DNA from: a virus
Direction: 5' to 3' (one strand)
DNA: 46,425 nucleotides
Virus record (IMG/VR): IMGVR_UViG_3300046524_000595
Span: 1 to 46,425 of that record
Positions 395-39,321 of the stretch are shown one piece after another (position 1 is the stretch's first letter; every line of letters begins with the position of its first letter). The notes beneath the pieces are model-generated. The model saw only the letters and a list, made by a program, of their open reading frames with translations. It did no database searches and was not told where the DNA came from. Both the position numbers and the translations under genes were made by a program.

Positions 395-483
395 TTCATA
401 TACGCCAATTGTGTAACTTCAGATACTCAACCCCTGAGTGTTATTACCCGGTCGCTCATCAAGAGCGCTCTGACGGAGGATTA

Positions 484-2475: not shown

Positions 2476-2482
2476 TTTCGAT

Positions 2483-21360: not shown

Positions 21361-21425
21361 CTGCACAGGCTGCCGCGCGCGCGCCGAATGGGCGAGGGCG
21401 GGGAGTTGTAGAGAGGGGCGCTACA
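21361..21425 (-). promoter_or_regulatory. late promoter P-FI with Ogr-type dyad
   Basis: The dyad TGTAGAGAGGGGCGCTACA (21407-21425, TGTA-N11-TACA) is centred at 21416. A -10-like hexamer CAGCCT (minus strand, 21372-21367) ends exactly 49 bp from that centre. This predicts a transcription start near 21360 and a leader of about 30 nt before FI. The geometry is the same as at the P/O and V promoters. The dyad overlaps the hairpin at 21415-21437. Confidence 0.65.
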
Positions 21426-21437
21426 GGGTAGCGCCTC
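21415..21437. terminator. hairpin between G and FI
   Basis: GGGGCGCTA pairs with TAGCGCCTC (9 bp including one G-U) across a 5-nt loop. It lies just after the G stop (21454) and could end the V-G operon before the FI promoter. No U tract follows on the minus strand, so termination strength is uncertain. Confidence 0.4.
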
Positions 21438-21453
21438 AGGGGAATGGGGTGGG

Positions 21454-22005
21454 TTACGATTCGACGGCAGGTGTTGTGGAGTCTGGCCAACCTTCGTACA
21501 GCATTTCATCCTGGTATTCGCCGGCCTCGATTGCGCGCAGCAATGCCAGCTCACGGTCAAAGCAAGCCTGAACGTGCGCTCGCACCGCCTTGGCGATTGC
21601 AATAATTTGCACCGATCCGATCTCGACAAAACCGGTCACCGTCTTGAAGTTGCAGCGGTATTCAGGATCGAGCACAGCAGATAACCCGGTACTGGCAATC
21701 AGCGCCTGGCTGTCGCGGGTCGTCTCGATGGCCAGCCCCTCGACGATGACTCCCGTGCCCTCACGCCTGAATCGTTCGGCGGCGACAACTTCGGCCTGTT
21801 GCTCGGGGGTTATGACCGGCGAGCCTGGCGGCGAAAAATGCCAAGAGCCGTCGCTTTCGATCGCACACCAGCCCACCCTGGGCGCAGGTTCGATGCCGTC
21901 CATACAAACCCAGACCGTAGATGGGTGATAGGCTTTCGAGATATCCCCATCCACCTTGGCCAGCTCGAATACCTGATCGCCGTAGATCCGCGCATAAATA
22001 CTCAT
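21454..22005 (-). CDS. G: tail fibre assembly protein (DUF4376-like), G equivalent
   Basis: The product is 183 aa, similar in size to P2 G (about 175). The N-terminus (MSIYARIYGDQVFELAK) interacts with the fibre gene context. The C-terminal half (RDSQALIASTGLSAV...FKTVTGFVEI) is a DUF4376-type domain. This protein is expected to chaperone trimerisation of the fibre upstream. Its ATG overlaps the TGA of the fibre gene. Confidence 0.82.
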   Translation of the reverse strand: MSIYARIYGDQVFELAKVDGDISKAYHPSTVWVCMDGIEPAPRVGWCAIESDGSWHFSPPGSPVITPEQQAEVVAAERFRREGTGVIVEGLAIETTRDSQALIASTGLSAVLDPEYRCNFKTVTGFVEIGSVQIIAIAKAVRAHVQACFDRELALLRAIEAGEYQDEMLYEGWPDSTTPAVES

Positions 22006-23819
22006 GTCCACTCCTCAATATCGACCCAGCCATCGGCGCCATGCCCGCCACGCAGATGCGTCGGGCACGATGGAAGCGCCACAGCGCCACCACCACCCGA
22101 ACCTGGATTAGTCGCGTCATTGCCGGGCTGGCTTGTTCCGATAGGGTTGCCACCCGGTCCCATTTCGCTAGCCCCTCCCTCGCCAGACACTACAAAATCC
22201 AGCTTGGGTGCAATGACGCCGCCACCACCCTTACCGGTTCCATTGTTAACGGTAGCGCCGACTGCTGGTTGCGAATTGGGGGTGGAGCCGAGGTACAGCG
22301 GCGGCGCGACATTTGCGGACAGACCGCCTCCAATCCCGCCTGGACCGGTCACCAAAGAACCGAATGAAGTAGCCCCACCGTTTCCACCTTGGGCGACCAG
22401 CACACCGATACCCCCCTTGCCAATCGTCACCAGCACGCCATCGAAGCCGCTGGTGATCCATGTATCAAACGGCGCTCCCGCACCTCCGCCGCAACCAGCG
22501 GAAACCTGACTAGACGAGGTTGAAGCAGCGCCGCCGCCGGCGGCGCCTGCCCCTTGGCCTTTCACCCTGATTTTGTTGGTTCCAGGTGTGGAGTAATAAA
22601 CCTGCGTGGCGCGAATTCGACGCGTCCCGATGAGACGCCCGGTAGCCTTGCGAACTTCATCGGCCAGAACACCGACGTCAATCACGCCCTGATTAACCGG
22701 CGAGCTCCACGCCTTAATGCACCACATCACCGCGACGTTGCGCGGGCGGGTTACACCGCCGCCAGACGGGTATTGGCTATAGGCGACGCCTGCTGTCGTG
22801 TATGTGATCCCAACACCGGGATAGTCCGTGTCCTTGTAAAGATCCGCCTGCGCCTCGACCGAAGAACCGCGCACAATGTCGACCGATGCACCGCCCGTAT
22901 AGTTGGTGTCAAAGACAGCAAGCGTACCTAGCTGCGTGCTACCAATCGCCCGCCCCGTATCAATACCCCGGCCATGATCCCAGCCGCGTAGAAACTCAGC
23001 GCGCAGATCTGGTAAGCGGAATTTGCTTGCCCCCTCGTTGCCCTTGTTGAATGCCGTACCGAGGAACGTGGACAGATCCGGGTATGCCGCGATGGTCTGA
23101 ACGCTGCCATCAAGTTCAAGAAAACCGGCCGGCATTTTGTTAACCGGGAACGCCACCACGGTGCCCACGGGCATGGCTGTAGCCTTTGCAATCAGCGCAT
23201 CTACTTCAGCCGCGGTATAGGTATCCTTGATACCCATTCCAGCCAATGTGTCCGGGTTATCTCCCGACTGGACAATCCCTCTGTTGTCGATTTTGACTCG
23301 CGTGAATTGCCCAGCCTGTTTGTCCGTAGTTAGAGCTGTTTTTACGGAGTCGTCCACGTATTTTCGGGTGGCTAACACCACCGAAGGGTCAATCTTTAGC
23401 TGAATGTTTGACGTGCCGCTGGTGATGATGTGCATCCGCACCACCTGGTTGCGGCCGGAGCCTTGGGCGAGCAAAGGTTTATAGCTCGGCGCCATGTTGG
23501 CAACGGCGGAGAACACGCCGTCCTTGTCTTCGAGAGCCAGTTCGCGCATCCACCAACCGCCAACGTCGGGTGGCAATACCAGCTCGGCGATCAGGACGTT
23601 GTCATCAGTAGGCGAAACGAACAGCTGGTTCAGCTGAGCGCGGTACCGCTGATTGATCAGCTTTGTCTGCGAGGGACTGGGAACCGGGTCGGTGCCGTTG
23701 GCATCGCCAATCAGCATGTGGCTCGGCTCCCACGGAATGCCGAGGGCGTCGCAGTTGGTTTTCTTGGCGGCGCCCTGCGTCGTCAGCATGCCGCCGAAAA
23801 TAGAGTTCTGATCAACCAT
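22002..23819 (-). CDS. H: tail fibre H with collar domain and glycine-rich tip
   Basis: The product is 605 aa. Residues 1-150 (MVDQNSIFGGMLTTQGAAKK onwards) are the P2 H-type baseplate-attachment domain, with VGGWWMRELALEDKDG. A collar domain follows at about 215-300 (PVGTVVAFP, FRLPDLRAEFLRGWDHGRGI). The last 170 residues are Gly/Ala/Ser-rich with many GGGG and GAGA runs and probably form a polyglycine-helix receptor-binding tip. That tip is where host range is set and where recombination is expected. The Met at 23819 is chosen over 23831 because the family starts MVDQ. Confidence 0.92.
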   Translation of the reverse strand: MVDQNSIFGGMLTTQGAAKKTNCDALGIPWEPSHMLIGDANGTDPVPSPSQTKLINQRYRAQLNQLFVSPTDDNVLIAELVLPPDVGGWWMRELALEDKDGVFSAVANMAPSYKPLLAQGSGRNQVVRMHIITSGTSNIQLKIDPSVVLATRKYVDDSVKTALTTDKQAGQFTRVKIDNRGIVQSGDNPDTLAGMGIKDTYTAAEVDALIAKATAMPVGTVVAFPVNKMPAGFLELDGSVQTIAAYPDLSTFLGTAFNKGNEGASKFRLPDLRAEFLRGWDHGRGIDTGRAIGSTQLGTLAVFDTNYTGGASVDIVRGSSVEAQADLYKDTDYPGVGITYTTAGVAYSQYPSGGGVTRPRNVAVMWCIKAWSSPVNQGVIDVGVLADEVRKATGRLIGTRRIRATQVYYSTPGTNKIRVKGQGAGAAGGGAASTSSSQVSAGCGGGAGAPFDTWITSGFDGVLVTIGKGGIGVLVAQGGNGGATSFGSLVTGPGGIGGGLSANVAPPLYLGSTPNSQPAVGATVNNGTGKGGGGVIAPKLDFVVSGEGGASEMGPGGNPIGTSQPGNDATNPGSGGGGAVALPSCPTHLRGGHGADGWVDIEEWT

Positions 23820-24435
23820 GGGGGTACACATCCAATTCGTCGAGGGTGTAAAGGCTCACGCCGCTGTAGCCCCGGATCGCGACATCAATGTCCGGGTTGT
23901 TCCAGGGATACACGTCGATTTCATCGCCGTCGTAAACAGCGAAACCAACGAACGCGTCGAGTTTGGTTTCAAGCACGATGTCGAGACCGGTCAGGTGCCG
24001 GGTAAGGGGTTTGGCGTCGTCGATCAGCCAGACCAGTTCCTGGTACATCTCTTCCGTGATGCCGGAGTCGAGGACGCCGATGCGCAATGCGAATGTGCCG
24101 GGTGTACCGGGTGGGACGGTCTGCCACCACTCCGCGACCTCGATCAGGTAACCGAGCGGTTCCACCACGCGTCGAAGGGCGCCGATGGTGCCTTTGTGTG
24201 AGTGAACGTAGTACGCAGCTCGGCAGGCGGCGCGCTTGGCGGCTTCTGACCATTTGCTGTCCCAGCGATCCACGGAAAAAGCCCACGCCAAATAGGGCAG
24301 TAGCGACAGAGGGCATTTGTCCGGGTTGTAGAGCGTGCGCAAGGGGATCGGTACGCGCTGAATCTGCTCCAAGGCCTGCGCAGCATGGCGCTCCAAGGGT
24401 GTGGAGTTGCCTGGCAGCAGCGGTTGGTAAGCCAT
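23812..24435 (-). CDS. I: baseplate/tail protein I
   Basis: The product is 207 aa (P2 I about 176) from the ATG at 24435, which overlaps the J stop. It joins the baseplate wedge to the tail fibre. Typical segments are LLPGNSTPLERHAAQALEQI, PYLAWAFSVDRWDSKWSEA and HSHKGTIGALRRVVEPLGY. It overlaps the start of the fibre gene by 8 bp. Confidence 0.93.
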   Translation of the reverse strand: MAYQPLLPGNSTPLERHAAQALEQIQRVPIPLRTLYNPDKCPLSLLPYLAWAFSVDRWDSKWSEAAKRAACRAAYYVHSHKGTIGALRRVVEPLGYLIEVAEWWQTVPPGTPGTFALRIGVLDSGITEEMYQELVWLIDDAKPLTRHLTGLDIVLETKLDAFVGFAVYDGDEIDVYPWNNPDIDVAIRGYSGVSLYTLDELDVYPHG

Positions 24436-25346
24436 CACTCGACCCCCAACGTCAGTTGAACATGGGTGCAATACGGCGCCTGAGACTTGGTGGCGACGAT
24501 ATCGACCCAGTCCTGCAGCACGACTTTGCGGACGCCCTCGACGTGCAGCGCGGCATGCACGATGGATTCGGAAACCTCCAGTGCCAGGCGTCGTCGTTGA
24601 TGCACGAACTGGAGCAACTGGGCTTCGGCTGCGGCGAGGACCAATTCAGTTTCCGGGCCACTGCTCAGGGGGTAGATCTTGGCCTTGACCTGGTAATTGA
24701 TGATCTCGGCGCCCAAGACGGTAAGTCGATCCGCGACGGGCCGGCGGTCGTCATCACTGAGGAAGGCCCTGACCTTGTCGAGCAGTGCCTGCGATGCGGT
24801 ACCGTCGCCCAGAACGGATTGCACGGTGACCACGGCTTCGGCCGGCGCCGGGCTTTCGGCGGTGGCGTCGGCGACCTGTCCGTCAGCGGACCGGGCGTGA
24901 AAGATGTAACTGTTGCGCGGGCCGGCGGTGCTGAGGCCTTCCCATGCCATTTGCGCACGTTCGCGTAGGCTGTCGTCGCTTTCCATGAGCTTCGGCAGTG
25001 GTGGCACTGCCGTAGGGTTCGCGGCCTGAATGACCAGGCGCTTGACGTTGAAATTGGCTGCGAGCTGTTCGAGGTCGGTGCCCTTGGCCAACGCGAGCAT
25101 GTTGGCAACTGACGCCTCATTGACGCGCTGCCGCCAAACGGTTTCGCGGTAGGCATTTTCCTCGAGCAATTTGGTCAGTGGTTCGGACTCCATGCTGAGA
25201 CGAGCAGCAATCTCGGCCTGTTGCTGGGTTGGCCAGAGGCTGATGGCAAATGCCTTTCGCTCCGCGAGGATCAGTTCGTAGTCGATCTGTTCGACGACTT
25301 GCGGCGCCGGAAGCTGGCCGAGGTCAATGGCGATGAAGGTGTTCAT
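24435..25346 (-). CDS. J: baseplate assembly protein J
   Basis: The product is 303 aa, nearly identical in length to P2 J (about 302). It is the large baseplate wedge subunit. Family landmarks are FIAIDLGQLPAPQVVEQIDY at the start, LLEENAYRETVWRQRVNEA, and ERAQMAWEGLSTAGPRNSY. It overlaps W by 4 bp and I by 1 bp, so the wedge genes are translated as a coupled set. Confidence 0.95.
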   Translation of the reverse strand: MNTFIAIDLGQLPAPQVVEQIDYELILAERKAFAISLWPTQQQAEIAARLSMESEPLTKLLEENAYRETVWRQRVNEASVANMLALAKGTDLEQLAANFNVKRLVIQAANPTAVPPLPKLMESDDSLRERAQMAWEGLSTAGPRNSYIFHARSADGQVADATAESPAPAEAVVTVQSVLGDGTASQALLDKVRAFLSDDDRRPVADRLTVLGAEIINYQVKAKIYPLSSGPETELVLAAAEAQLLQFVHQRRRLALEVSESIVHAALHVEGVRKVVLQDWVDIVATKSQAPYCTHVQLTLGVE

Positions 25347-25687
25347 GCGCCTCCCCCCAAGTTCAGCGGCACACTCAGACTCAGCGGTTGGTTGCTGTCC
25401 ACGATGGTGCCTTCAAGGTCCAGCGACGCCTGGCCCTGAAGGTTCGCGCCGATGAACTGGATACGGCTGAGGCTGATGCGGGTTTCCCAGCGCATCAGGG
25501 CCATGACCGTGGCGGCGTATACCTGCAAGCGGGTGAAGTCGTTGAACGGCTGATCCACCAGCTCGGGGAGCAGGCTGCCGTATTCGCGGCGCATGACGCG
25601 GGTGCCGATGCGCGTGGTCAGGATGTCGGTGATGGACTGGGCGATGTGGTCGACCAGGCCGAGGGCTGCGCCGGTTTCTCGGTTCAT
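25343..25687 (-). CDS. W: baseplate assembly protein W
   Basis: The product is 114 aa (P2 W about 115). It is the small, lysozyme-like baseplate wedge protein related to T4 gp25. The segment RVMRREYGSLLPELVDQPFN, with the conserved Glu-Tyr-Gly-Ser, is diagnostic. It is coupled to V and J by 4-bp overlaps. Confidence 0.95.
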   Translation of the reverse strand: MNRETGAALGLVDHIAQSITDILTTRIGTRVMRREYGSLLPELVDQPFNDFTRLQVYAATVMALMRWETRISLSRIQFIGANLQGQASLDLEGTIVDSNQPLSLSVPLNLGGGA

Positions 25688-26256
25688 TCCGGTTTTCCTG
25701 TTTTCGCACCACCGGCCATAACGCCGCCGTGCGGGTGGTTAACCAGACTGATGTTGGCTGCGATCACGTCCACGGACACGGTGACTTTGCCAGTGACGTT
25801 CTGGTTTCCGGTCTGGGTGTAGTCGCCCTCATGGGTGATCGGGCCGACGATGTGGATGCCGCCCGTGCTCATCAGGTTGGTGGTACCGCCCTCGGCCAAA
25901 GTGGCGTTGAGGTGGTGCGCAACGCTGTCGTACTCGATGACGGTGCCGTCGCGGTAGGTGCAGCGGTGCAGGCCTTCGCGGTCGCCGTTGGCCGGGATGT
26001 TGTCGCTGAACAGGCCGGTCAGGACTATGCCGTTGCCGAGCTGGCCGGATGGGCTGAAGAGTATGACCTGCTCGCCTTCGGTGGGCGGGTTCCATTCGCG
26101 GTCGGCGCCGGCTCGGGCGGCGACCCATGGGAGCCAGCCGGTGGTTAGGGTTCCGGTTTTTACCTGTACGCGCGGGGGCTTCATCTGGACGGCAGCTATG
26201 GTGCCGAGGCGGATGAGGTTTTCGATCAGGCGGGAGAGGGTGGCTAGGTCGTTCAT
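25684..26256 (-). CDS. V: baseplate spike protein V
   Basis: The product is 190 aa (P2 V about 211). It is the trimeric membrane-piercing spike. An OB-fold region comes first (VQVKTGTLTTGWLPWVAARA, GEQVILFSPSGQLGNGIVL). The C-terminal repeats form the beta-helical needle, ending in NHPHGG. The start codon sits in a perfect 10-bp palindrome and has no Shine-Dalgarno sequence. The predicted late promoter starts 1 nt upstream, so the mRNA may be leaderless. Confidence 0.93.
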   Translation of the reverse strand: MNDLATLSRLIENLIRLGTIAAVQMKPPRVQVKTGTLTTGWLPWVAARAGADREWNPPTEGEQVILFSPSGQLGNGIVLTGLFSDNIPANGDREGLHRCTYRDGTVIEYDSVAHHLNATLAEGGTTNLMSTGGIHIVGPITHEGDYTQTGNQNVTGKVTVSVDVIAANISLVNHPHGGVMAGGAKTGKPE

Positions 26257-26322
26257 GGCGCCAAGTTTGGCGCCATGCGTTGGTAGGTGCAGTCTCGTAG
26301 CTTTGTATCTGTTGAGTCTACA
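26255..26322 (-). promoter_or_regulatory. late promoter P-V with Ogr-type dyad and start-codon palindrome
   Basis: The dyad TGTATCTGTTGAGTCTACA (26304-26322) has the TGTA-N11-TACA form and is centred at 26313. The -10-like hexamer CAAACT (minus strand, 26269-26264) ends 49 bp away, which predicts a start near 26257. The region 26255-26276 is a perfect palindrome (ATGGCGCCAA, 2-nt spacer, complement) that includes the V start codon. The dyad remains between V and the inserted nuclease gene, so V keeps its own promoter. Confidence 0.65.
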
Positions 26323-26351
26323 GTATTAGATATCCTATTTTTTTCGTTCGT

Positions 26352-27452
26352 TCAACGGGGCAAGGATAGTAAAAAATCGTCAGTCATTTCAAATAAAAGG
26401 TCTGTTGGGTCGCTTCCATTTTCTTTCATGCGAAGCATTTTACAGATGTCTTCGTCTTTCAAAATCAGTATCAGTTTTCCGCTTTCTCTCATTGCTCCTT
26501 GGGTCATCTTAATTGCACTTTCGTGTGCGCCTTTTCGAGTGAGCATTATTGCTACACGTCTCAACGCTTTTTCTAATAAATATTTCTCTGTGGTGAGGAC
26601 TTGCCCTTGTTTTATTTGTTCTTTGTAGTTTTTGAATTCGAAGATGATATATCTGCTGTGCATTTGCTGGATGACGAAGTTCCAGAACTCGGTAGAGGGC
26701 TTGATGCGACAGACATAGTCAAAGCGATTAAGCTCATCATCTGTTCTTTTTTGTTTGCTCCAGCCAGATAGGTGATCGTTGAAAAGATACTTCAGTATTT
26801 TTTCGCAAAGTTTTTCATACTGGCTCCAGTCGATGCTTCCAGAAGAAAGATTATGGAGTTCTTTGCACAGTCTAGATCCGGTGTTGTCTAGTGGCTCTGT
26901 TGATTTTGGGTTGGCGGTTGGAGGCGTAAGAAGTTTTGTTACCTCTTGGGCATCGGTGCTGAAATCAGGTTTTTCATCGTTAGCGGTTTTCTGGTCGCTT
27001 TTTGAGTTGTAGAAATCTTCAATTGAAACTGAGAGGTCATTTGTACCTATTTCTAATAGAGCATATAACTCCTCAGTAAGAGACGGCGATGATGATGCGA
27101 AGTGCAGAAGTAGCTGTCGATCTACTATGAACAGATCGTATGTTCTTGTTAGTTGTATTTTTTGCTCGTTTGTAAAGGTGCAGGAGGCGATTAGCATTCC
27201 TTTAGCGCTCGGGTGTTTCTCCCGTGCAAATTGAATCTGTCTTGCGGCATTAGTGAGTAGCTTTAATTGTGCTCTCTGTGTTTTGTAATATTTTGTCTCT
27301 ACTGCCCAAGTTATATCATCCTTTTGAATTAATAAATCTATATAGCTGGAGTCGGACTGAAGTATTTTGAAGCCGAAATTTTTGAGTATTTTTTCAACGA
27401 GTTTTTCGAATTTTCTTCCTGAAGCTATGGATTCTTCCATACGGCTTACCAT
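26352..27452 (-). CDS. protein with two PD-(D/E)XK nuclease-like domains, AT-rich cargo
   Basis: The 366-aa protein has two regions resembling restriction-endonuclease folds. The first is at about 12-110, with GRKFEKLVEKIL, YIDLLI (Asp39) and WAVETKYYK (Glu52, Lys54). The second is at about 208-345, with RFDYVCRI (Asp245), IIFEFKNYK (Glu272, Lys274) and MLTRKGAHESA. A low-complexity linker joins them. The gene is markedly AT-rich, with poly-T tracts on the + strand, and lies between S and the V promoter. It is therefore an independently acquired cargo gene, probably an anti-phage or exclusion nuclease. The target is unknown. The start could also be the Met at 27440. Confidence 0.75.
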   Translation of the reverse strand: MVSRMEESIASGRKFEKLVEKILKNFGFKILQSDSSYIDLLIQKDDITWAVETKYYKTQRAQLKLLTNAARQIQFAREKHPSAKGMLIASCTFTNEQKIQLTRTYDLFIVDRQLLLHFASSSPSLTEELYALLEIGTNDLSVSIEDFYNSKSDQKTANDEKPDFSTDAQEVTKLLTPPTANPKSTEPLDNTGSRLCKELHNLSSGSIDWSQYEKLCEKILKYLFNDHLSGWSKQKRTDDELNRFDYVCRIKPSTEFWNFVIQQMHSRYIIFEFKNYKEQIKQGQVLTTEKYLLEKALRRVAIMLTRKGAHESAIKMTQGAMRESGKLILILKDEDICKMLRMKENGSDPTDLLFEMTDDFLLSLPR

Positions 27453-27506
27453 CGTTTTTAGTGGATTTTGTTTTGTGGTTTGTTTTGTTGGACGGTTGAT
27501 GCGGAG

Positions 27507-27965
27507 TTACTGTATCAGGTAGTTTAGTAGATGGTCTTTAATCGAATCCAGATCCGCGTCAGTAAACCCTAGTAGTTCTCGTTGATCGTAGACAGTGTTT
27601 GGCGCTCCGCGCTCAGCGCGATCAATCAAACCATATTGATGAACCTTTGCGATACGCGCGATTCGCCCTGTGAATCCGACACTGACAGTGCTTCTATCAC
27701 CCTGCACTCTCAAAAACCTAGCTGTACGTAACTTCTGAAACATTTTGACCTTTCGCTTCATTCTTCCCTGTTTGCCGCGCAAATTGCGCTGCTTTCGCGG
27801 TGCGTATTTGCTTCCGTTTGGATTCTGCTGGGCCATGATTCGCTGTTGTTGGCTAAGACGCAACGCCTTACCGAGACTGCGGGCCAGCTTGTTGCGCGAT
27901 GCCGGCTCAAGCTGCCCAAGCAATCCCGCCGCCCAATCTTCCAGCGCTTCCAGTCGGTTTGTCAT
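27507..27965 (-). CDS. S: tail completion protein S
   Basis: The product is 152 aa (P2 S about 150) from the ATG at 27965, which overlaps the R stop. It is a virion morphogenesis/tail completion protein. The basic stretch RKQRNLRGKQGRMKRKVKMF and the GFTGRIARIAKVHQYGL segment identify the family. It is the last gene of the O-S operon before the nuclease cargo gene. Confidence 0.92.
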   Translation of the reverse strand: MTNRLEALEDWAAGLLGQLEPASRNKLARSLGKALRLSQQQRIMAQQNPNGSKYAPRKQRNLRGKQGRMKRKVKMFQKLRTARFLRVQGDRSTVSVGFTGRIARIAKVHQYGLIDRAERGAPNTVYDQRELLGFTDADLDSIKDHLLNYLIQ

Positions 27966-28438
27966 TTCGGCAGCACCCATTCGCTCCCAGTACCCTGTGC
28001 ACCTGGTATCCAGTTCGGATCAAGAAAATCAGCAGCCCGTTGAGGTTCGCCGGGATGTCGAACGGTGGTGTTGCCCTGGTCATCCTTTCCCACCACCACA
28101 CGCTCGGTCAGCGGCAGAGTCAGGCTCATATCCACTTTGCTGTTGTCGAGAATGTCAGCCTCGAATTGGATACCGTCTGCGGCTTTGCTCAGGTTCTCCA
28201 GCAACTCGGACTGATGGACGCTCAGCCAGCCGAGCAGCGGCAGCATGACGCTGTCGGGGTGGCCGGCGAAGTCGGTGAGGATGACCTGCAGGTCGAAGCT
28301 GTATTCGAACGACAGCGTTTGCGCAGCGGTGCAGCGGATCTTGCCGTTGTCGATGAAGATCAGCAGCCGGTCAGGGTTGTGCTTGAGTTCGGCCACGGTG
28401 GCGAGCAGGTGAGCTTTCAGGCTGTCGGGCTTGTTCAT
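27962..28438 (-). CDS. R: tail completion protein R
   Basis: The product is 158 aa (P2 R about 155), starting MNKPDSLKAHLLATVAELKH. The segments PDRLLIFIDNGKIRCTA and EYSFDLQVILTDFAGHPDSV are typical of the R family, which closes the head-proximal end of the tail. Its ATG overlaps the Rz1 stop, and its stop overlaps the S start. Confidence 0.93.
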   Translation of the reverse strand: MNKPDSLKAHLLATVAELKHNPDRLLIFIDNGKIRCTAAQTLSFEYSFDLQVILTDFAGHPDSVMLPLLGWLSVHQSELLENLSKAADGIQFEADILDNSKVDMSLTLPLTERVVVGKDDQGNTTVRHPGEPQRAADFLDPNWIPGAQGTGSEWVLPK

Positions 28439-28692
28439 GGCCGGGCCTGCTGGTGCTGGTAAACCATGTCGATTTGGCTTGCACAGTCCGCCCATGCGGC
28501 CTCGACGCGATCCTGATCGGTGAGTTGATCACCGTTATTGCGCGGTCTGGTTGCTGGTAGCGTGCACGGCACCACGGCCGGACAGCCACTGACGATAAGC
28601 GTCGGCGCCGGTGAGGGCGGGGCGCTCGCGCAGCCGGCGAGCAGCATCAGGCAAAAGCTGGGCAGCCCAATTGCGTAGATCGGCGTTTTCAC
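28435..28692 (-). CDS. outer-membrane spanin lipoprotein Rz1 (LysC)
   Basis: The product is 85 aa with a signal sequence ending in the lipobox LAGC (Cys at about 21). A Pro-rich segment follows (ASAPPSPAPTLIVSGCPAVV). It is embedded out of frame in the end of the Rz gene and extends past it, the usual Rz/Rz1 nesting. With Rz it fuses inner and outer membranes at lysis. Confidence 0.88.
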   Translation of the reverse strand: MKTPIYAIGLPSFCLMLLAGCASAPPSPAPTLIVSGCPAVVPCTLPATRPRNNGDQLTDQDRVEAAWADCASQIDMVYQHQQARP

Positions 28693-28978
28693 GTTTCAGA
28701 GCCTCAATGGTGAGTTCGCGCTTTGCCAAGCCTTGGCGCAATTGATCCTGTTGCGTGCGCAGGGTGGTCTGGGCGTTGCGTTCTTGTTGCAGGGTGTCGC
28801 GCAACGCGTTGGCATTGGCGAAGTTGCGTTCGGCTTGTTCTCGTGCGCGGCTGGCGTCTTGCTCGGCCAGTTGCGTGTCCTTGTTCGCCCCGCTGATGCG
28901 CAGCTCCTGGCTCCAGATCAGCAGCCCCACCGCTGCAAGCAATGCAATGCCGAGCAAGGCCTGCCGCAAGGTACTCAC
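28535..28978 (-). CDS. inner-membrane spanin Rz (LysB)
   Basis: The product is 147 aa with an N-terminal membrane helix (QALLGIALLAAVGLLIW). A long Gln/Arg/Ala-rich coiled coil follows (about 30-110) that reaches across the periplasm. It contacts Rz1, whose gene starts within this one at 28692. This is the LysB-type spanin of P2-like phages. Its start overlaps the end of the small gene upstream. Confidence 0.88.
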   Translation of the reverse strand: MSTLRQALLGIALLAAVGLLIWSQELRISGANKDTQLAEQDASRAREQAERNFANANALRDTLQQERNAQTTLRTQQDQLRQGLAKRELTIEALKRENADLRNWAAQLLPDAARRLRERPALTGADAYRQWLSGRGAVHATSNQTAQ

Positions 28979-29181
28979 GCCCGGTACCAGCCAAGCTGAT
29001 TCATGTCGCCGACGTCCATGTGCTGGATCGGGCCGCGAATGATGATGACTTTGCGCTGCGGGTTCTGGATGCAGAGCGCGTCGCGCAGCTGCACCATGTC
29101 CTGCTGATCGCTGTTCTCTGGCACTACCAGCAGATCACCGTCTTGGACATTCAGCCGCTGCACCGCGTCGAAGTCGATCAT
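28975..29181 (-). CDS. small hypothetical protein in lysis cassette
   Basis: The product is 68 aa, starting MIDFDAVQRLNVQDGDLLVV. The ATG overlaps the endolysin stop and its own stop overlaps the Rz start, so it belongs to the lysis cassette. The sequence has an alternating beta/alpha pattern with no membrane segment. In P2 no gene stands at this place. It could modulate lysis timing, but I do not recognise it. Confidence 0.7.
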   Translation of the reverse strand: MIDFDAVQRLNVQDGDLLVVPENSDQQDMVQLRDALCIQNPQRKVIIIRGPIQHMDVGDMNQLGWYRA

Positions 29182-30020
29182 GCCGCCACCGCCTGCCCGC
29201 AACCGCAGTCGTCGTGCCGTTCGTAGGCGCGCTGAAGTTTGATGTCGTACAGGTTTCGCTGGTAGTCCGGTCCGTTGTAGAGCTTGGCGAACTCGGCCCA
29301 TTTACGGCCCTTCAGCGCCTTGTGTAGCACCGGATCGGTTTCGATGAACCGGACGAACGCATCGAACTGTTGCGACTCGCCCGCGCTTATGGCGACCACG
29401 AAGTCCTGCACGCTGCTGTAGCCCAGGCGCTGCCAGTGAAAGCCCATGATCTGGAACGCGCCCCACGATGCGGATTCCAGCGCGGCGGTGTCGTCGATCA
29501 AGCGAGCGGTGGCCAGGCGCTGGTGTTCGGCGCTGCCGCCGGCATAGCCACCGGATTTCGGATTGACGATGGCCGGGTTGGCTGCGGCTAACTGATCAGC
29601 GTGGCGTTTGAGCGCGACCGGATCGTCACCTTCGTGGCGAGCCTTCGCCAGTTGGCGATACATGATGTGCCGTTCGAACAAGATCACCGGTTTGCCGTTG
29701 TCGAGGAAGCCGGCTCCTTTCGACTCAACTTCATTGACCGCGTAGACGCTGGCCAGCGGCACGCCGAGACGTTCGGCAGCGTTGACCAGGTCGGTGTTCT
29801 TCAGCAACTGCTGGCAGTCGGTGCCAGCGAGCGCGCCAAGTGTCTTGTTGCCTGCGACGCCATCGGCTACCAAACCAACCTTGAGTTGATAGGCGCGCAC
29901 GGCGTTCTCCGTGGCATCGCCATAATCGCCATCGACGTCCAGTTTTGCGCCGTGTTGGTTGAGGCTCTTTTGCAGATTGCTCACCGCTTGCGAGCGGTCA
30001 CCGTGGCGAAGTGTGGTCAT
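29178..30020 (-). CDS. endolysin: peptidoglycan-binding domain plus N-acetylmuramidase
   Basis: The product is 280 aa from the ATG at 30020. Residues 1-65 are a PG_binding_1 domain (LRHGDRSQAVSNLQKSLNQH, then LDVDGDYGDATENAVRAYQ). Residues about 85-270 match the N-acetylmuramidase family, with YAVNEVESKGAGFLDNGKPV, ILFERHIMYRQL and ASWGAFQIMGFHWQRLGY. The catalytic Glu is probably in NEVES. It degrades the cell wall at lysis after the holin acts. It is larger than P2 K and of a different enzyme type. Confidence 0.93.
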   Translation of the reverse strand: MTTLRHGDRSQAVSNLQKSLNQHGAKLDVDGDYGDATENAVRAYQLKVGLVADGVAGNKTLGALAGTDCQQLLKNTDLVNAAERLGVPLASVYAVNEVESKGAGFLDNGKPVILFERHIMYRQLAKARHEGDDPVALKRHADQLAAANPAIVNPKSGGYAGGSAEHQRLATARLIDDTAALESASWGAFQIMGFHWQRLGYSSVQDFVVAISAGESQQFDAFVRFIETDPVLHKALKGRKWAEFAKLYNGPDYQRNLYDIKLQRAYERHDDCGCGQAVAA

Positions 30021-30340
30021 AGTTGCTCTACCTTGCGGTTGAAAATCTTCTTGGCGGCCGCGCGAGTGCCCTCGACGCCGAGCAGTCCGATCACGCCGCC
30101 GAAGAAAGGCGCGGTAGTAGCCGGAATCCCCAGCAGCGACAGCCCATGACTGGCGGAAAGCGCCAGCGCGCCGCATAGGGGAGCCTCGATCACCATGCGG
30201 CGCACGGTGCCGCCGCCATAGATCACACGAAGGCTCGCGATGACCACTGCCAGCAGGCCGGAGTAGATGGCGGGCCAGTTCTGTTCGAGCCAGGCGGCGA
30301 GCCAGGCCCAGGTGTCGGGACGGTCAGGCATGCGTTTCAT
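30017..30340 (-). CDS. holin
   Basis: The product is 107 aa from an ATG at 30340; a second Met at 30331 could give a shorter form. Three hydrophobic segments can be seen (IYSGLLAVVIASLRVIYGG, LCGALALSASHGLSLLG and APFFGGVIGLLGVEG). A basic tail (AAAKKIFNRKVEQL) follows. This matches lambda-type phage holins that time lysis. A dual start three codons apart resembles holin/antiholin pairs and may regulate timing. It overlaps the endolysin start by 4 bp. Confidence 0.87.
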   Translation of the reverse strand: MKRMPDRPDTWAWLAAWLEQNWPAIYSGLLAVVIASLRVIYGGGTVRRMVIEAPLCGALALSASHGLSLLGIPATTAPFFGGVIGLLGVEGTRAAAKKIFNRKVEQL

Positions 30341-30385
30341 TCCATGATCCAGAGTGGTTGGGTTCAAGGGCGCGGTGCGGGCGGT

Positions 30386-30598
30386 TCAGTCCCATAGATT
30401 CACCATCTGCCGTTGCGGGGCGGCGGCTTGGGCTTCCGGCATTTGCACCAGAAGGCCTTGCGGCAAGGTCGGGCCGTGGTCGGCCAGCCCTGGGTTGGCT
30501 CCAAGCACGGCCTCGGTCACGCCGGCGGTGCGGCCGTAGTGACGCCAGCAAAGTGCGTCGACGGTGTCGTGCTGCTGGGCGCGAATGCCGGTGGCCAT
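30386..30598 (-). CDS. X: tail protein X
   Basis: The product is 70 aa (P2 X about 67). It is a small LysM-like tail terminator or hub-associated protein. The segment HDTVDALCWRHYGRTAG is typical of the family. The ATG at 30598 overlaps the L stop (TGATG); a TTG at 30601 in frame is not preferred. Confidence 0.92.
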   Translation of the reverse strand: MATGIRAQQHDTVDALCWRHYGRTAGVTEAVLGANPGLADHGPTLPQGLLVQMPEAQAAAPQRQMVNLWD

Positions 30599-31068
30599 CA
30601 AATCAACTCCACGGTGGTGCGGCCGAGGCCGAGGAAGTCGCGCACGGCCCAGCGCTGGTCGCGGCGCAATTCGTCGATGCTTGGTGTCAGTTCTTCGGCG
30701 TTCTGGTTGCCGCTGTTGGTGCTGTCGTAGGAGCGGTAGCGCTCGCAGATCTCCGCACCGGTCGCGGCGTAGATCGCCCGCTGATAGAGGTGAACGAGTT
30801 CAGATTTGTCCTCGATTTGTTCGGCCGGTACTACTGCGAGGGTGGCATAGCCTTCGGCCTGCTTGGTGCGGCGCCATGCGGCGAACTCACGATTCAAGGC
30901 AATGGCGGCGGCGATGGTCGCGGTTTCCAGACGGATCGGCGTGACGCTGGAGTCGATGCGTAAAGTGCCGCGCACGTCATCGAGGTCGATCGACGGCCAG
31001 AAGGGGTCGGTGTTGATGTGGCCGCTGGAGGCCGGAGTAGTGCTGCCGCCCGCTACGAATCCGCTCAT
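30598..31068 (-). CDS. L: head completion protein L
   Basis: The product is 156 aa (P2 L about 169). It is the head-completion/stabilisation protein that seals DNA-filled capsids. The segments INTDPFWPSIDLDDVRGTLR and RAIYAATGAEICERYRSYDS are recognisable. It follows M with a gap of about 100 bp that holds no gene, and is coupled to X by overlap. Confidence 0.92.
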   Translation of the reverse strand: MSGFVAGGSTTPASSGHINTDPFWPSIDLDDVRGTLRIDSSVTPIRLETATIAAAIALNREFAAWRRTKQAEGYATLAVVPAEQIEDKSELVHLYQRAIYAATGAEICERYRSYDSTNSGNQNAEELTPSIDELRRDQRWAVRDFLGLGRTTVELI

Positions 31069-31172
31069 GAATCTGCGCTCTGTTGTAGGTCGCCGGTGGT
31101 CGGGGCTTCACGTTCAGGAGGAGCGGCCTGGCCGATCCGCCCCGAGCCGGCGGGGTGCGTGGGGACGCTCGG

Positions 31173-31871
31173 TTAGCTGCCAGAAGCAGCGAGTTTGTTG
31201 AGCAGGCGTTCGGCCCGCTCCAGATCCTTTTTGCCACCGCACGCGTCGTGCAGGTCGATGGCTTTTTTCAGCAAGTCGATACCGGCTTGCACTTGGCCGG
31301 GTTGGCCGGGGCGCTCGTCGGTGATGCCTTCCAGCGTTGCGCGGCCCATGGCGAGGAATAGCTTGGCGCGTGCCTGATCGGGCATGTCCTCGGCGTCGGT
31401 CAGTTCGGCAGTGCGATGCAGGATGGCCAGGTCGAACGACTCGCCCACCTTCTGCGCCTTGAACGCGGCGGTCGCGACTTCTTCGGCGACCAGACAGCCG
31501 AGCGTGCGGGCGAAGCGGTCAGGCATGACCATCTTGTGTTGCAGCACGTACTGGGCGATGTCGAGGCCACCGCTGAAGTCGCCGGCATCGAAGCGCCAAA
31601 CCATGATGGTGGTCAGCACTTCGTCTTGGGCACCTTGGCCAGCGTCCAGCACGCCTTGCACGTAGGGGATGTATTCGGGCAGCAGCTGACGCTTGAGTTC
31701 GGCCTTGCCCTGGTTCGATTGCACCAGTTTCAGACGCAGGCGGTCTTGCAGCAGCTGGTTCAACTGATGTTCGTAGGCCGTGGCGCCGGCCATGGTTTGG
31801 GTAGGTTCAACGGCTGCCGCCTCCTTGGCGGCAGTGACGCGTTGAAAATGACGACGGCAAGGATTGGTCAT
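31173..31871 (-). CDS. M: terminase small subunit M
   Basis: The product is 232 aa (P2 M about 247) from the ATG at 31871, which has GAGGGCGG upstream. It is the terminase endonuclease/DNA-recognition subunit that acts at cos with P. Typical segments are MTNPCRRHFQRVTAAKEAAA, YEHQLNQLLQDRLRLKLVQS and TIMVWRFDAGDFSGGLDIA. Confidence 0.94.
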   Translation of the reverse strand: MTNPCRRHFQRVTAAKEAAAVEPTQTMAGATAYEHQLNQLLQDRLRLKLVQSNQGKAELKRQLLPEYIPYVQGVLDAGQGAQDEVLTTIMVWRFDAGDFSGGLDIAQYVLQHKMVMPDRFARTLGCLVAEEVATAAFKAQKVGESFDLAILHRTAELTDAEDMPDQARAKLFLAMGRATLEGITDERPGQPGQVQAGIDLLKKAIDLHDACGGKKDLERAERLLNKLAASGS

Positions 31872-31882
31872 GGTCGCCGCCC

Positions 31883-32890
31883 TCAAGCCAAGGTGATGTT
31901 TTCGGCCATGGCTGCACAGCCAAGGTCTTCGATCACATAGCTTTCGTTAACCGATTCGAAGTTCTCGATGCGGTCGCGTTTGGCGTTGTCGACGACGGTG
32001 CGGCGGCGGGTGCCTTCCTGCCAATAGATCGACAGGTTATCGAGGCGAGTGACCAGCAGGCCGTTGGGCGGGAAGTGCGGCACGCGCACGGCCGGCAGAT
32101 TGCCCAGACGTTTCTGGCTGGTGACGATGTCGGCGGCCAGGATTTCAGTCGGCGCCTGGGTTTTGTTGATGATCGGGAAGTATTTGTCGGCCAACAGCTG
32201 ACGGCCGCAGATGACCACCAGATCGGTGTCTTCCTGATACCAAGGGTCGATGAACTCGTTGACCATGCTGACAACCAGCGCGTCGATGTTTTCGAAGTCC
32301 TTACCGGCTCCGATTTCGATCTTGCCGCTGCCTGCCGCTACCTCGGCCATAACGCGGGCTTCGTTTTCGGTGCGCATTTTTTGCAACCAGCCGATGTTGA
32401 CGTCCTGCAACAGCGGGTTGGTAGCCGGGTTCGACGTGGCGGCACGGCTGGTACCGTTCCAGCCGATCATGATCCGGTTGAGTGCTTGGGCTTTGATGAT
32501 CGCGTCGCGGATACGCGCCTGGAAGTCTTTGAACTTCGCCCACTGATCCAGCTTCTGGTAACGCAGGCCGGTGTCGAAGTTGGTTTGCGTGCAGGTGTAC
32601 CCGCGATTGTCCAGGCTGCTCGGGTCACGGGGTTCGCGATCTTTCACGGTGGTGTCGGTGGTGCTGGCAATGGTGCCGTCGATGCCGATGCCGATCTTCT
32701 CGCCGGACTGCTCGGACACGCCGTAGATGTTGATCGAACTGAGGAACGAGCTGGATTCCTGAATACGGGTTTCCAGCGTCTGTGCGACGCTTGGTGCTGC
32801 GGTGAATTTAGTGGTGACATCGCTTACGCCGTGCAACTGGGCGAGCTGTTGCAGGTAAGCGTTGAACAGAACTCGTGTGTCGTTACGCAT
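31883..32890 (-). CDS. N: major capsid protein N
   Basis: The product is 335 aa (P2 N about 357). It is the HK97-fold major capsid protein of P2-like phages. Landmarks are MRNDTRVLFNAYLQQLAQLH, RIMIGWNGTSRAATSNPATN and PWYQEDTDLVVICGRQLLA. The N-terminal part is expected to be trimmed by the O protease during maturation. It stands between O and M in the same leftward operon. Confidence 0.96.
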   Translation of the reverse strand: MRNDTRVLFNAYLQQLAQLHGVSDVTTKFTAAPSVAQTLETRIQESSSFLSSINIYGVSEQSGEKIGIGIDGTIASTTDTTVKDREPRDPSSLDNRGYTCTQTNFDTGLRYQKLDQWAKFKDFQARIRDAIIKAQALNRIMIGWNGTSRAATSNPATNPLLQDVNIGWLQKMRTENEARVMAEVAAGSGKIEIGAGKDFENIDALVVSMVNEFIDPWYQEDTDLVVICGRQLLADKYFPIINKTQAPTEILAADIVTSQKRLGNLPAVRVPHFPPNGLLVTRLDNLSIYWQEGTRRRTVVDNAKRDRIENFESVNESYVIEDLGCAAMAENITLA

Positions 32891-32934
32891 GGTGATCGTC
32901 CTTCGTTATTCGGGGCTGTGGTGGGGGCTGACTG

Positions 32935-33765
32935 TCAGCAGTCGGTCACGACCGAGTTATCGCCGCCGGTTACCGGAGGGCGCGTCTTTTGGCTGTGGTC
33001 TTGGGTGGTGGAGAGCTTGGTCTTCAACTCGGTGAAGTCCTTGCTCAGTTGATCCAGTCGGGTACTCAGGCCTGCGGAGAATTTCTTCTCGGCGGTCAGT
33101 TGGTCCGGCAGGTCCTTGACGTGTTCGGCGACGGCTTCGACGGCATCACTGATCTGGGAAAACTCGCTGTCGTCCTTGGTCTGTTTGCCCTTGAGCAGGT
33201 TTTGCACCTTGCTGAAAAGCTGGGCGCCGATGCTGGGCTTTTCCTCGATCTCTTCGAATGTCAGTTCGGTTTCGACCGCCTCGGTGAACATCGAGGTCGG
33301 TGAGTAATGGCGATCCTTGAACGGATTGGCTTCGGGTTTTTGAGCGGAGAACGCGAGGACGTCGGTACCCAGGCTGGCAGGCGAGTCGGTCACCGCCAGG
33401 CCAACGATGTACGCTTCTCCTGTATCGGAGAAGCTGTCGTCAATTTCGATGGAGGTGTAAATCTTCTGCTTCGCCTTGTTCATGGCGATCAGTTCAGGCG
33501 TCGGCTCGACCTGGGCGAACAGCGCCAGTTTTTTCTGGCCGTTCATGTCCACTTCTTCTGTCTTCACTGCCAGCACGTCGCCGTAGGCCTTGAACGGACT
33601 GTCGGGCAGCACGCTGCGGTAATGCTCCAGCCAAATGCGGGCACCATAGGTGGACGGGTTGAAGTTCTTCGCAGCCTGTTCCAGCCAGCTGCGTTTGATG
33701 GTGCGCTTGTCTGAGGTAGCGCCCTCGACGGCGACGCGGAACCAGTTGCTGCGAAATTTCTTCAT
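32935..33765 (-). CDS. O: capsid scaffold/protease O
   Basis: The product is 276 aa (P2 O about 284) from the ATG at 33765. The N-terminal protease domain includes MKKFRSNWFRVAVEGATSDK, RIWLEHYRSVLPDSPFKAYG, VQTEPTPEL-like residues and the GLAVTDSPASLGTDVLAFS motif with the catalytic Ser. The C-terminal third is a helical scaffold (about 200-270). It is the first gene of the O-N-M-L-X-lysis-R-S operon and diverges from P. Confidence 0.94.
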   Translation of the reverse strand: MKKFRSNWFRVAVEGATSDKRTIKRSWLEQAAKNFNPSTYGARIWLEHYRSVLPDSPFKAYGDVLAVKTEEVDMNGQKKLALFAQVEPTPELIAMNKAKQKIYTSIEIDDSFSDTGEAYIVGLAVTDSPASLGTDVLAFSAQKPEANPFKDRHYSPTSMFTEAVETELTFEEIEEKPSIGAQLFSKVQNLLKGKQTKDDSEFSQISDAVEAVAEHVKDLPDQLTAEKKFSAGLSTRLDQLSKDFTELKTKLSTTQDHSQKTRPPVTGGDNSVVTDC

Positions 33766-33822
33766 GCCGGGAATCCTCATTGCGTAGGGCGCCTGCTGTT
33801 GGCTGAGCAGTGCGTTGCGATG

Positions 33823-33934
33823 AGGGGCATGGTCGTGACGCGCGCGAGTTGCGGCAACGAGGCGGGACTGTAAGGGCGGGGGCTACAAGGGGCGGTGCTA
33901 TTGAGTCGCGGTCGCGGGCGGCAGCATCGCGGCC
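33823..33934. promoter_or_regulatory. divergent late promoters P-P and P-O sharing one Ogr-type dyad
   Basis: One dyad, TGTAAGGGCGGGGGCTACA (33869-33887, centre 33878), lies between the divergent genes. On the plus strand the hexamer CAGCAT (33922-33927) ends 49 bp to the right. On the minus strand GACCAT (33834-33829) ends 49 bp to the left. Both distances equal those at the V and FI promoters. The predicted P transcript starts 1 nt before its ATG, while O gets a leader of about 57 nt. A second palindrome, GTTGCGGCAAC, is at 33848-33858. Confidence 0.68.
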
Positions 33935-35692
33935 ATGACTACGACCGCACTGCTACCCATCGACCCTCGCCGCCAATCCAAGTTTCTCTACTGGATGGGT
34001 TGGCGCATCTGCGAGATTGCCGAGGCTACGGGCGAAAAGGAAAAAACGCTACACAGCTGGAAGGCTCGCGATGAGTGGGACCGGGCTGACAACGTCGAAC
34101 GCATCGGCGGGGCACTGGAAGCGCGGTTGGTGCAACTGATCCTCAAGGAGGGGAAGAGCGGGGGCGACTTCAAAGAGATTGATTTGCTGCACCGGCAGTT
34201 GGAGCGGCAGGCGCGCATCCAGCGCTTTCAAGGTGGCGGCACTGAAACCGACCTCAACCCGAATCTGGCGAAACGCAACGCCGAGCCGAAGAAAAAGGCC
34301 GTTAAGAACGAGATTGACGAAGATCAGATCGAACTGCTGCGCGAGGCCTTCATTGATGGCTGTTTCGACTATCAGAAAGACTGGTACCGCGCCGGCAATC
34401 AGCGCACCCGCGTCATCCTCAAAAGCCGGCAGATCGGCGCCACTTACTACTTCGCCCGTGAGGCGTTCATTGATGCGCTGGAGACCGGGCGCAACCAGAT
34501 TTTCCTGTCGGCTTCGAAGAACCAAGCCTACCTGTTCCGGGGCTACATTCAGGCGTTCTGCCGCGAGGTAATCGGTGTCGAGCTGACCGGTGACCCCATT
34601 GTGTTGCCCAACGGCGCCGAGCTGTTTTTCCTCGGCACCAACGCCCGCACAGCGCAGGGCTATCACGGCAATTTCTACTTCGACGAGTTCTTCTGGACGT
34701 TCAAGTTTGAAGAGCTGAATAAGGTCGCCTCGGGCATGGCGATGCACAAGAAATGGCGTAAGACCTACTTTTCCACGCCGTCGAGCATGGCCCACGAGGC
34801 GTACACCTTCTGGACGGGCGAGCGCTTCAACAAGGGCAAGCCCGCCGCGCAGCATACGAAGGTTGATGTGTCCCACGGCGCGCTCCAGCAGGGCCGGTTC
34901 TGTGAGGATCGGTTGTGGCGGCAGATCGTCACGATCCTCGACGCGGAGCGGGGAGGTTGCGACCTCTTTGACATTGAAGAGCTGCGCCGCGAATACAGTC
35001 CCGAGGCGTTCGCCAACCTGCTGATGTGTGAGTTCGTCGACGACGGCGCGAGCATCTTCCCGCTGACCCTGTTGCAGTCCTGCATGGTGGATAGCTGGGT
35101 CGAGTGGGCCGAGGACTATAAACCTTTCGCCATGCGCCCGTTCGGCGACCGCCAGGTATGGATTGGCTACGACCCGGCCGAGACGGGCGACTGTTCCGGC
35201 ATGGTTGTGGTCGCGCCGCCCCTGGTACCGGGTGGCAAGTTTCGCATTCTCGAACGCCACCAATTCCGGGGCATGGACTTCGCCGCGCAGGCGGCGTTCA
35301 TCAAGAGCGTCTGCGATCGTTACTGGGTGACCTACATTGGGATCGACGTGACCGGTCTGGGCAGCGGCGTGGCCCAGCTGGTGCGCCAGTTCTTCCCGGC
35401 GGTGACCACCTTCAGCTACTCGCCCGAAGTCAAAACCCGCCTGGTACTCAAGGCCTACGACGTGATCCACAAGGGCCGGCTCGAATTCGATGCCGGCTGG
35501 ACCGACATGGCCCAGTCGCTGATGGCGATCCGCAAAACCGTCACAGCCGGCGGACGCCAGTACACCTACACCGCCGGCCGCAACGACAACACCGGCCACG
35601 CCGACCTGGCCTGGGCGCTCTTTCACGCATTGCACCACGAACCGCTTGAGGGGCAGACCACTGCCAACACCGGGCGCATGGAGATTTACTGA
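33935..35692 (+). CDS. P: terminase large subunit (ATPase) P
   Basis: The product is 585 aa (P2 P about 590). It packages DNA into the prohead. An N-terminal HTH-like region (about 12-60, MGWRICEIAEATGEKEKTLH) precedes the ATPase (VILKSRQIGATYYFAREAFI, FYFDEFFWTF). The nuclease-like C-terminal domain includes WIGYDPAETGDCSG and YIGIDVTGLGSG. No Shine-Dalgarno sequence stands before the ATG, which lies 57 bp from the Ogr dyad centre, so translation may start on a leaderless mRNA. Its last base is the first base of the Q start codon. Confidence 0.95.
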   Translation: MTTTALLPIDPRRQSKFLYWMGWRICEIAEATGEKEKTLHSWKARDEWDRADNVERIGGALEARLVQLILKEGKSGGDFKEIDLLHRQLERQARIQRFQGGGTETDLNPNLAKRNAEPKKKAVKNEIDEDQIELLREAFIDGCFDYQKDWYRAGNQRTRVILKSRQIGATYYFAREAFIDALETGRNQIFLSASKNQAYLFRGYIQAFCREVIGVELTGDPIVLPNGAELFFLGTNARTAQGYHGNFYFDEFFWTFKFEELNKVASGMAMHKKWRKTYFSTPSSMAHEAYTFWTGERFNKGKPAAQHTKVDVSHGALQQGRFCEDRLWRQIVTILDAERGGCDLFDIEELRREYSPEAFANLLMCEFVDDGASIFPLTLLQSCMVDSWVEWAEDYKPFAMRPFGDRQVWIGYDPAETGDCSGMVVVAPPLVPGGKFRILERHQFRGMDFAAQAAFIKSVCDRYWVTYIGIDVTGLGSGVAQLVRQFFPAVTTFSYSPEVKTRLVLKAYDVIHKGRLEFDAGWTDMAQSLMAIRKTVTAGGRQYTYTAGRNDNTGHADLAWALFHALHHEPLEGQTTANTGRMEIY

Positions 35693-39051: not shown

Positions 39052-39321
39052 TGGACATCCCTTTCTTTTGTGGTTGTGTGATGCTGGCAATGTTTGACGG
39101 CTTTAGTTGAAATGATTCAGCAAGATATATTCTTCAGCTTTTGCTTTAGATGTCCTCGCCTATAAGTTATAGCACTTATGTGGCTACCCTCTCTGATCAA
39201 TTGTCATCTATACGCAATGTGCAATCGCTTGTATTTGGTAATGCAGCTCCAGTGCCGAGGTTGTGCGCTTATTTGGTGCGCGCATCGAAAGCGTGCTCAC
39301 AGAGCTGACTTGGCGCGCGCC

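What the first reader, a model, noticed from the sequence alone, without database searches (positions are those of the whole stretch)
21361..33934. Four late promoters share an exact geometry around a TGTA-N11-TACA dyad; one dyad serves two divergent promoters
The dyads at 33869-33887, 26304-26322 and 21407-21425 are 19 bp each (TGTA-N11-TACA) and lie in front of the P/O, V and FI units, the units known to be Ogr-controlled in P2. In all four promoters a -10-like hexamer (CAGCAT for P, GACCAT for O, CAAACT for V, CAGCCT for FI) ends exactly 49 bp from the dyad centre. P and O are symmetrical about one dyad. The dyad and spacing are seen directly; binding by the Ogr-like protein at 10392-10682 is an inference from the P2 family.
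Basis: partly seen in the sequence, partly recalled or inferred. Interest (0 to 1): 0.75.

Follow-up and report, generated by a model that had tools for sequence, protein, structure and literature searches.

The report
Late-gene switches of a P2-like prophage
Three matching DNA marks sit at a fixed distance before the head and tail genes of a Pseudomonas P2-like virus, as in the textbook phage P2, and for two of the genes the distance is so exact that their messages probably begin at the very first letter of the gene.

Summary
TGTA-N11-TACA occurs exactly three times in the window (0.1 expected), before P/O, V and FI, and all four hexamers end 49 bp from a dyad centre. This is the late-promoter system of P2-like phages. 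An Ogr/Delta zinc-finger gene is present at 10392-10682, and the P2 and 186 records already annotate one activator site serving two divergent promoters, so the headline is known biology. Comparison adds four points. (1) The dyad is 19 bp (TGT-N13-ACA), against 18 bp in P2; an N13 core is already reported for phages RSA1/RSY1. (2) Across related phages the dyad-to-ATG distance is locked for P (111/111 unique promoters at 56-58 bp, 90% at 57) and V (134/134, 82% at 57). It varies for O (60-120 bp). ATG lies 7 bp after the -10-like hexamer, so P and V mRNAs are probably leaderless. The P2 record places the V start on the A of ATG; in P2 and 186, P has a leader of about 22 nt. (3) V promoters conserve only the dyad, a TGC at -35, CANCAT at -10 and ATG. 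(4) Where a gene separates P and O, each has its own correctly spaced dyad. No transcript ends were mapped.

The parts
33869..33887 (.). Dyad TGTAAGGGCGGGGGCTACA (centre 33878), shared by divergent promoters P (+) and O (-); putative Ogr site
33922..33927 (+). -10-like hexamer CAGCAT of the P promoter (ends 49 bp from the centre)
33935..35692 (+). P (terminase large subunit); ATG is 57 bp from the dyad centre and 7 nt after the hexamer; inferred leaderless start
33829..33834 (-). -10-like hexamer GACCAT of the O promoter
33854..33857 (-). -35-like TTGC of the O promoter, 17-bp spacer between the -35 and -10 hexamer positions
   Evidence: T, T, G each 100% in 39 clusters
32935..33765 (-). O (capsid scaffold/protease); likely true start ATGAAG at 33765 with GAGGA Shine-Dalgarno (first ATG of the ORF is 33780)
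26304..26322 (.). Dyad TGTATCTGTTGAGTCTACA (centre 26313) of the V promoter
26289..26292 (-). -35-like CTGC of the V promoter
26264..26269 (-). -10-like hexamer CAAACT of the V promoter
25684..26256 (-). V (baseplate spike); ATG 57 bp from the dyad centre, 7 nt after the hexamer; inferred leaderless start
   Evidence: P2 homologue annotated with its start on the A of ATG
21407..21425 (.). Dyad TGTAGAGAGGGGCGCTACA (centre 21416) of the FI promoter
21367..21372 (-). -10-like hexamer CAGCCT of the FI promoter
20161..21330 (-). FI (tail sheath); ATG 86 bp from the dyad centre, so about a 29-nt leader
10392..10682 (-). ogr-like gene, C4 zinc-finger activator (Ogr_Delta), GTG start

Best explanation
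These are the four Ogr-dependent late promoters (pP, pO, pV, pF) of a P2/phiCTX-like Pseudomonas prophage. Inferred mechanism: the phage's Ogr zinc-finger protein, encoded in the early region, binds the TGTA-N11-TACA dyad about 56-57 bp upstream of each start. From there it recruits host RNA polymerase (sigma-70 type) to a weak promoter made of a partial -35 (TTGC/CTGC in O and V) and a -10 that lacks the TATAAT core but keeps A(-11) and T(-7) (CANCAT). One dyad feeds P and O because the site is palindromic and each promoter lies at the same distance on either side. For P and V the start codon sits where transcription begins, so these mRNAs are leaderless; O and FI carry leaders. Shown: dyads, spacing, conservation, gene identities, the ogr gene. 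Inferred: Ogr binding, start sites, leaderless translation.
For: Three exact dyads against 0.1 expected, all before late operons. Ogr_Delta domain with the C-X2-C-X22-C-X4-C motif. After clustering promoter sequences at 85% identity (39 P, 106 V, 39 O, 30 FI), the conserved islands are the dyad, a -35-position element and the hexamer at 44-49; in V the rest is close to random. Dyad centre to ATG is 56-58 bp in 111/111 unique P and 134/134 unique V promoters, with 57 in 90% and 82%, while O ranges 60-120 bp. The spacer from hexamer to ATG is 7 nt in 101/117 P and 113/137 V. P and V lack a Shine-Dalgarno core. The P2 record gives the V start on the A of ATG and pP/pO starts 55.5 bp either side of the shared site. 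In relatives where P and O are separated by an inserted gene, each keeps a dyad: 57-58 bp from P and 82-98 bp from O.
Against: No transcript ends or binding data exist for this phage. The hexamers are poor matches to TATAAT and a consensus scan finds no promoter there. The P2 consensus quoted in the literature has N12, not N13. Related sequences are not independent. Leaderless translation of abundant late mRNAs in Pseudomonas is unproven here.
Confidence: 0.9

Rival explanations
1. The dyads are bound by some other regulator (a host factor or the phage repressor), not by the Ogr-like protein.
For: Binding is not tested here. Ogr of P2 and the window protein share only 19% identity in the alignment.
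Against: The genes are exactly those under Ogr/B control in P2 and 186. The sites lie almost only before late operons. ogr is 95-97% identical in four checked relatives that carry the same dyads. The geometry matches the annotated P2 starts.
Confidence: 0.05
2. P and V are not leaderless: transcription starts further upstream (for instance from a read-through or second promoter) and the 57-bp rule reflects shared ancestry only.
For: The sequences are related, and leader length was not measured. In P2 and 186, P has a leader of about 22 nt.
Against: Unique V promoters differ almost completely between dyad, -35, -10 and ATG, yet keep 56-58 bp, while O in the same phages varies from 60 to 120 bp. 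The P2 record puts the V start on the ATG. A rearranged J gene in L236 also starts 57 bp from a dyad.
Confidence: 0.17
3. The dyad-to-gene geometry is a chance pattern picked out by eye.
For: The hexamers match TATAAT at only 2-3 of 6 positions.
Against: 0 of 100 shuffles reach three dyads. The same hexamer position is conserved in 30-106 clusters per promoter.
Confidence: 0.01

Closest known systems
P2 late promoters pP, pO, pV, pF with activator Ogr
   Same: Same four operons, same divergent sharing of one activator site, same distance to start (55.5-57.5 bp), leaderless V in the GenBank record.
   Different: P2 and 186 sites are 18 bp (TGT-N12-CCA or -CAA at the annotated positions; consensus TGT-N12-ACA quoted in PMC3931495); here 19 bp, TGTA-N11-TACA. 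P2 P has a leader of about 22 nt; here none is expected. P2 ogr lies after gene D; here it lies in the early region.
186 late promoters p12, pV, pJ with activator B
   Same: Divergent p12/pV share one B site; the orf32 (V homologue) upstream reads CATTCT-7 nt-ATG.
   Different: 18-bp site TGT-N12-CCA; the P homologue has a leader of about 22 nt by the record's annotation.
phiRSA1/phiRSY1 (Ralstonia) Ogr motif TGTTGT-N13-ACAACA (PMC5694545)
   Same: Inner TGT-N13-ACA core; four putative late promoter regions, as here.
   Different: The window lacks the outer TGT/ACA half-repeats and has A/T at the fourth position; the passages read do not report leaderless starts.
Pseudomonas phages Dobby and Sirocco (Citexvirus)
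   Same: Same TGT-N13-ACA type of dyad, V ATG at 56-57 bp, FI at 86 bp; Ogr 43-47% identical.
   Different: P is annotated from an upstream GTG only 36 bp from the dyad; the in-frame ATG downstream fits the rule better.

Membership tests
Ogr/Delta-dependent late promoters of Peduoviridae | Phage-encoded Ogr/Delta C4 zinc-finger activator | tested here: met
   PF04606 5e-16; C-X2-C-X22-C-X4-C
Ogr/Delta-dependent late promoters of Peduoviridae | TGT...ACA dyad before the P, O, V and FI operons | tested here: met
Ogr/Delta-dependent late promoters of Peduoviridae | Dyad centred about 55 bp upstream of the transcription start | tested here: inconclusive
   Spacing to the -10-like hexamer fits a start at 56-57 bp; starts not mapped
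Ogr/Delta-dependent late promoters of Peduoviridae | One site activates divergent pP and pO | tested here: inconclusive
   Sequence symmetry met; P2 and 186 annotated so; activity not testable here
Ogr/Delta-dependent late promoters of Peduoviridae | Transcription requires Ogr | not testable with these tools
   needs an ogr deletion or in vitro transcription
P2-subtype activator site (TGT-N12-ACA, 18 bp) | 12 bp between TGT and ACA | tested here: not met
   All three sites have 13 bp; TGT-N12-ACA is all but absent from the upstreams of relatives. So not filed as P2 subtype
phiRSA1-type site TGTTGT-N13-ACAACA | Inner TGT-N13-ACA | tested here: met
phiRSA1-type site TGTTGT-N13-ACAACA | Outer TGT and ACA repeats | tested here: not met
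   Window flanks are GACTGTA...TACAAGG, CTTTGTA...TACAGTA and AGTTGTA...TACAGGG
Leaderless mRNA (P, V) | 5' end at the start codon | not testable with these tools
   Inferred from fixed geometry; the P2 V record supports it

The most novel reading that the evidence does not exclude
In the phiCTX-like Pseudomonas branch of P2-like phages, both the packaging operon (P, Q) and the baseplate operon (V...) are translated from leaderless mRNAs whose start codon is set directly by the Ogr dyad, about 57 bp away. P became leaderless in this branch, or gained its leader in coliphages, while O and FI kept leaders. Late head and tail output would then depend on leaderless initiation for two of the four operons.
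Probability: 0.65. Interest if true: 0.5.

Novelty: new member of a known kind. Interest (0 to 1): 0.37.

Why it matters
It extends a textbook activator circuit (Ogr, P2) to a large, little-studied set of Pseudomonas prophages with a precise and testable rule: 49 bp to the -10, 57 bp to the start. The same rule exposes probable leaderless late mRNAs and gives a way to correct doubtful starts (for example P of phages Dobby and Sirocco). Phages in which an inserted gene separates P from O provide a natural test of how a palindromic site drives two promoters.

Tried and rejected
Consensus sigma-70 scan: finds neither these promoters nor more sites than shuffles do. The GGCGCC inverted repeat around the V -10 (perfect 11-bp arms in the window, 26254-26277) was tested for covariation in 79 V promoters; only a weak excess was found, so it is not claimed. 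A conserved extra exact dyad in four relatives (TGTACCGASCGGCTGTACA and a variant) lies inside the coding sequence of the gene next to ogr, 181 bp from ogr in three of them, so it is taken as coding conservation. The relaxed pattern TGT-N13-ACA gives 10 hits in the window against 7.8 expected, so three letters per arm are not enough. A P2-protein scan returned only close coliphage copies. Literature searches for leaderless P2-like late mRNAs found nothing relevant in the open-licence library. My first Shine-Dalgarno estimate used a long anti-SD and gave a misleading value for P; the core CCUCC test replaced it.

Full report
What was checked. The pattern TGTA-N11-TACA occurs three times in 46,425 bases, at the stated coordinates, with 0.10 expected and none of 100 shuffles reaching three. 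With only three letters per arm (TGT-N13-ACA) there are 10 hits against 7.8 expected, so the fourth letter and the position carry the signal. Reading the sequence, CAGCAT at 33922-33927 (P), GACCAT on the minus strand at 33829-33834 (O), CAAACT on the minus strand at 26264-26269 (V) and CAGCCT on the minus strand at 21367-21372 (FI) each end exactly 49 bp from their dyad centre (33878, 26313, 21416).

What it is. The window is an IMG/VR virus record. The genes behind the dyads are P (terminase large subunit), O (scaffold/protease), V (baseplate spike) and FI (sheath); 10392-10682 encodes an Ogr/Delta zinc-finger protein with C-X2-C-X22-C-X4-C. In named genomes the closest relatives of O are in Pseudomonas species; among named phages the nearest are Citexvirus phages such as Dobby and Sirocco. 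This is a P2/phiCTX-like Pseudomonas prophage.

What is already known. The GenBank record of P2 annotates one activator site for pO and pP, starts at 3016 (P) and 3127 (O), the V start at 10308, which is the A of the V ATG, and the F start at 17626-17628. The midpoint of the two divergent starts is 3071.5, which coincides with the centre of the TGT-N12-CCA site, so each lies 55.5 bp from it. The 186 record has one B site for p12 and pV. The consensus TGT-N12-ACA is quoted in PMC3931495, and a TGTTGT-N13-ACAACA version for phiRSA1/phiRSY1 in PMC5694545.

Comparative test. O-protein relatives (80 loci), Dobby-type relatives, V-protein relatives and prophages in named genomes were combined (264 sequences). 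In the window plus the first 80 loci, 116 of 127 exact dyads lie before P/O, V or FI. In 48 whole records I sum 142 hits against 24 for the reversed control pattern. With the start codon taken as the in-frame ATG nearest the homologous start, the dyad centre lies 56-58 bp from the ATG in 111 of 111 unique P promoters (57 in 100) and 134 of 134 unique V promoters (57 in 110) that have a TGT-N13-ACA site in range. For O the distance runs from 60 to 120 bp and for FI it is 83-87 bp. Some upstreams, mainly of more distant relatives, lack a TGT-N13-ACA site altogether (listed) and are outside this count.

Footprint. With promoters aligned on the dyad centre and clustered at 85% identity, 106 V promoters conserve only four islands: TGTA...TACA; T22 G23 C24 (88, 88, 82%), which is position -34 to -32; a hexamer at 44-49 (mostly CACCAT/CAACAT) with A at -11 (85%) and T at -7 (84%); and the ATG at 57. 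O promoters have TTG at -35 to -33 in 100% of 39 clusters and GACCAT or GAACAT, with a 17-bp spacer. So the late promoters look like weak sigma-70-type promoters with canonical spacing, although a consensus scan does not see them. The base at 57 is usually a purine after a pyrimidine: CA in P and V, TG or CG in FI, less uniform in O.

Leaderless starts. In P and V the ATG follows the hexamer by 7 nt (101 of 117 and 113 of 137), and neither gene has a Shine-Dalgarno core (2% with strong pairing). In coliphage relatives V also shows CANNCT-7 nt-ATG, agreeing with the annotated P2 V start. For P this differs from P2 and 186, where the records place a leader of about 22 nt. O has a likely start at 33765 with GAGGA upstream, because relatives lack the first ATG of the ORF. 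That these mRNAs are leaderless is inferred, not measured.

Natural experiments. In six of the distinct upstreams examined (L011, L051, L068, L069, L070, L276) a related ~400-codon gene separates P and O by about 1.5 kb. P then has its own dyad at 57-58 bp with CAGCAT or a one-base-shifted version, and O keeps its own at 82-98 bp with GACCAT. The inserts are homologous to one another, so this may be one or a few events rather than six. In L236 the J gene, apparently at the head of a rearranged operon, starts 57 bp from a TGTA dyad. Both fit a rule in which every late operon needs one dyad at fixed distance.

Verdict. Observation confirmed and interpretation supported. The system is a new member of the P2-type Ogr-controlled late promoters. 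The 19-bp dyad excludes the P2 (18-bp) subtype and resembles the N13 core of phiRSA1. The additions that may interest a specialist are the locked 57-bp rule, the probable leaderless P and V mRNAs, and the partial -35. Not shown: Ogr binding, start sites, dependence on Ogr, leaderless translation.

Noticed in passing
L006:13643-14990: A V promoter plus about the first 26 codons of V is duplicated about 1.2 kb upstream of the intact V, with an insert in between; a relic that may show how cargo genes enter at the V promoter.
   Followed up: partly
window 26254-26277: Perfect 11-bp inverted repeat CATGGCGCCAA-GT-TTGGCGCCATG overlaps the V -10 and start codon; many relatives have GGCGCC on both sides of the -10, but covariation is weak.
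   Followed up: partly
L011:6271-7473, L051:2882-4048 and homologues in L068, L069, L070, L276: Gene of about 390-400 codons inserted between P and O, with no confident Pfam family, carrying a CPEC motif.
   Followed up: partly
window 26352-27452: Mrr-like nuclease cargo gene between S and V (Pfam Mrr_cat; weak PADLOC PDC-M36A match).
   Followed up: no
window 36769-39090: AAA_13 ATPase next to Q, strong match to PADLOC candidate defence family PDC-S06.
   Followed up: no
window 349-1317 and 2390-3634: A host-type undecaprenyl-diphosphate phosphatase gene lies near a tyrosine recombinase gene, probably marking the chromosome-prophage border.
   Followed up: no
L085:5607 and L086:5169: P of phages Dobby and Sirocco is annotated from a GTG 36 bp from the dyad; the in-frame ATG downstream, at the expected distance, is more likely the start.
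   Followed up: partly
L341-L345: Comamonadaceae relatives have a TGT-N13-ACA site 60-62 bp before O but none near P, so the P/O sharing seems to differ there.
   Followed up: no
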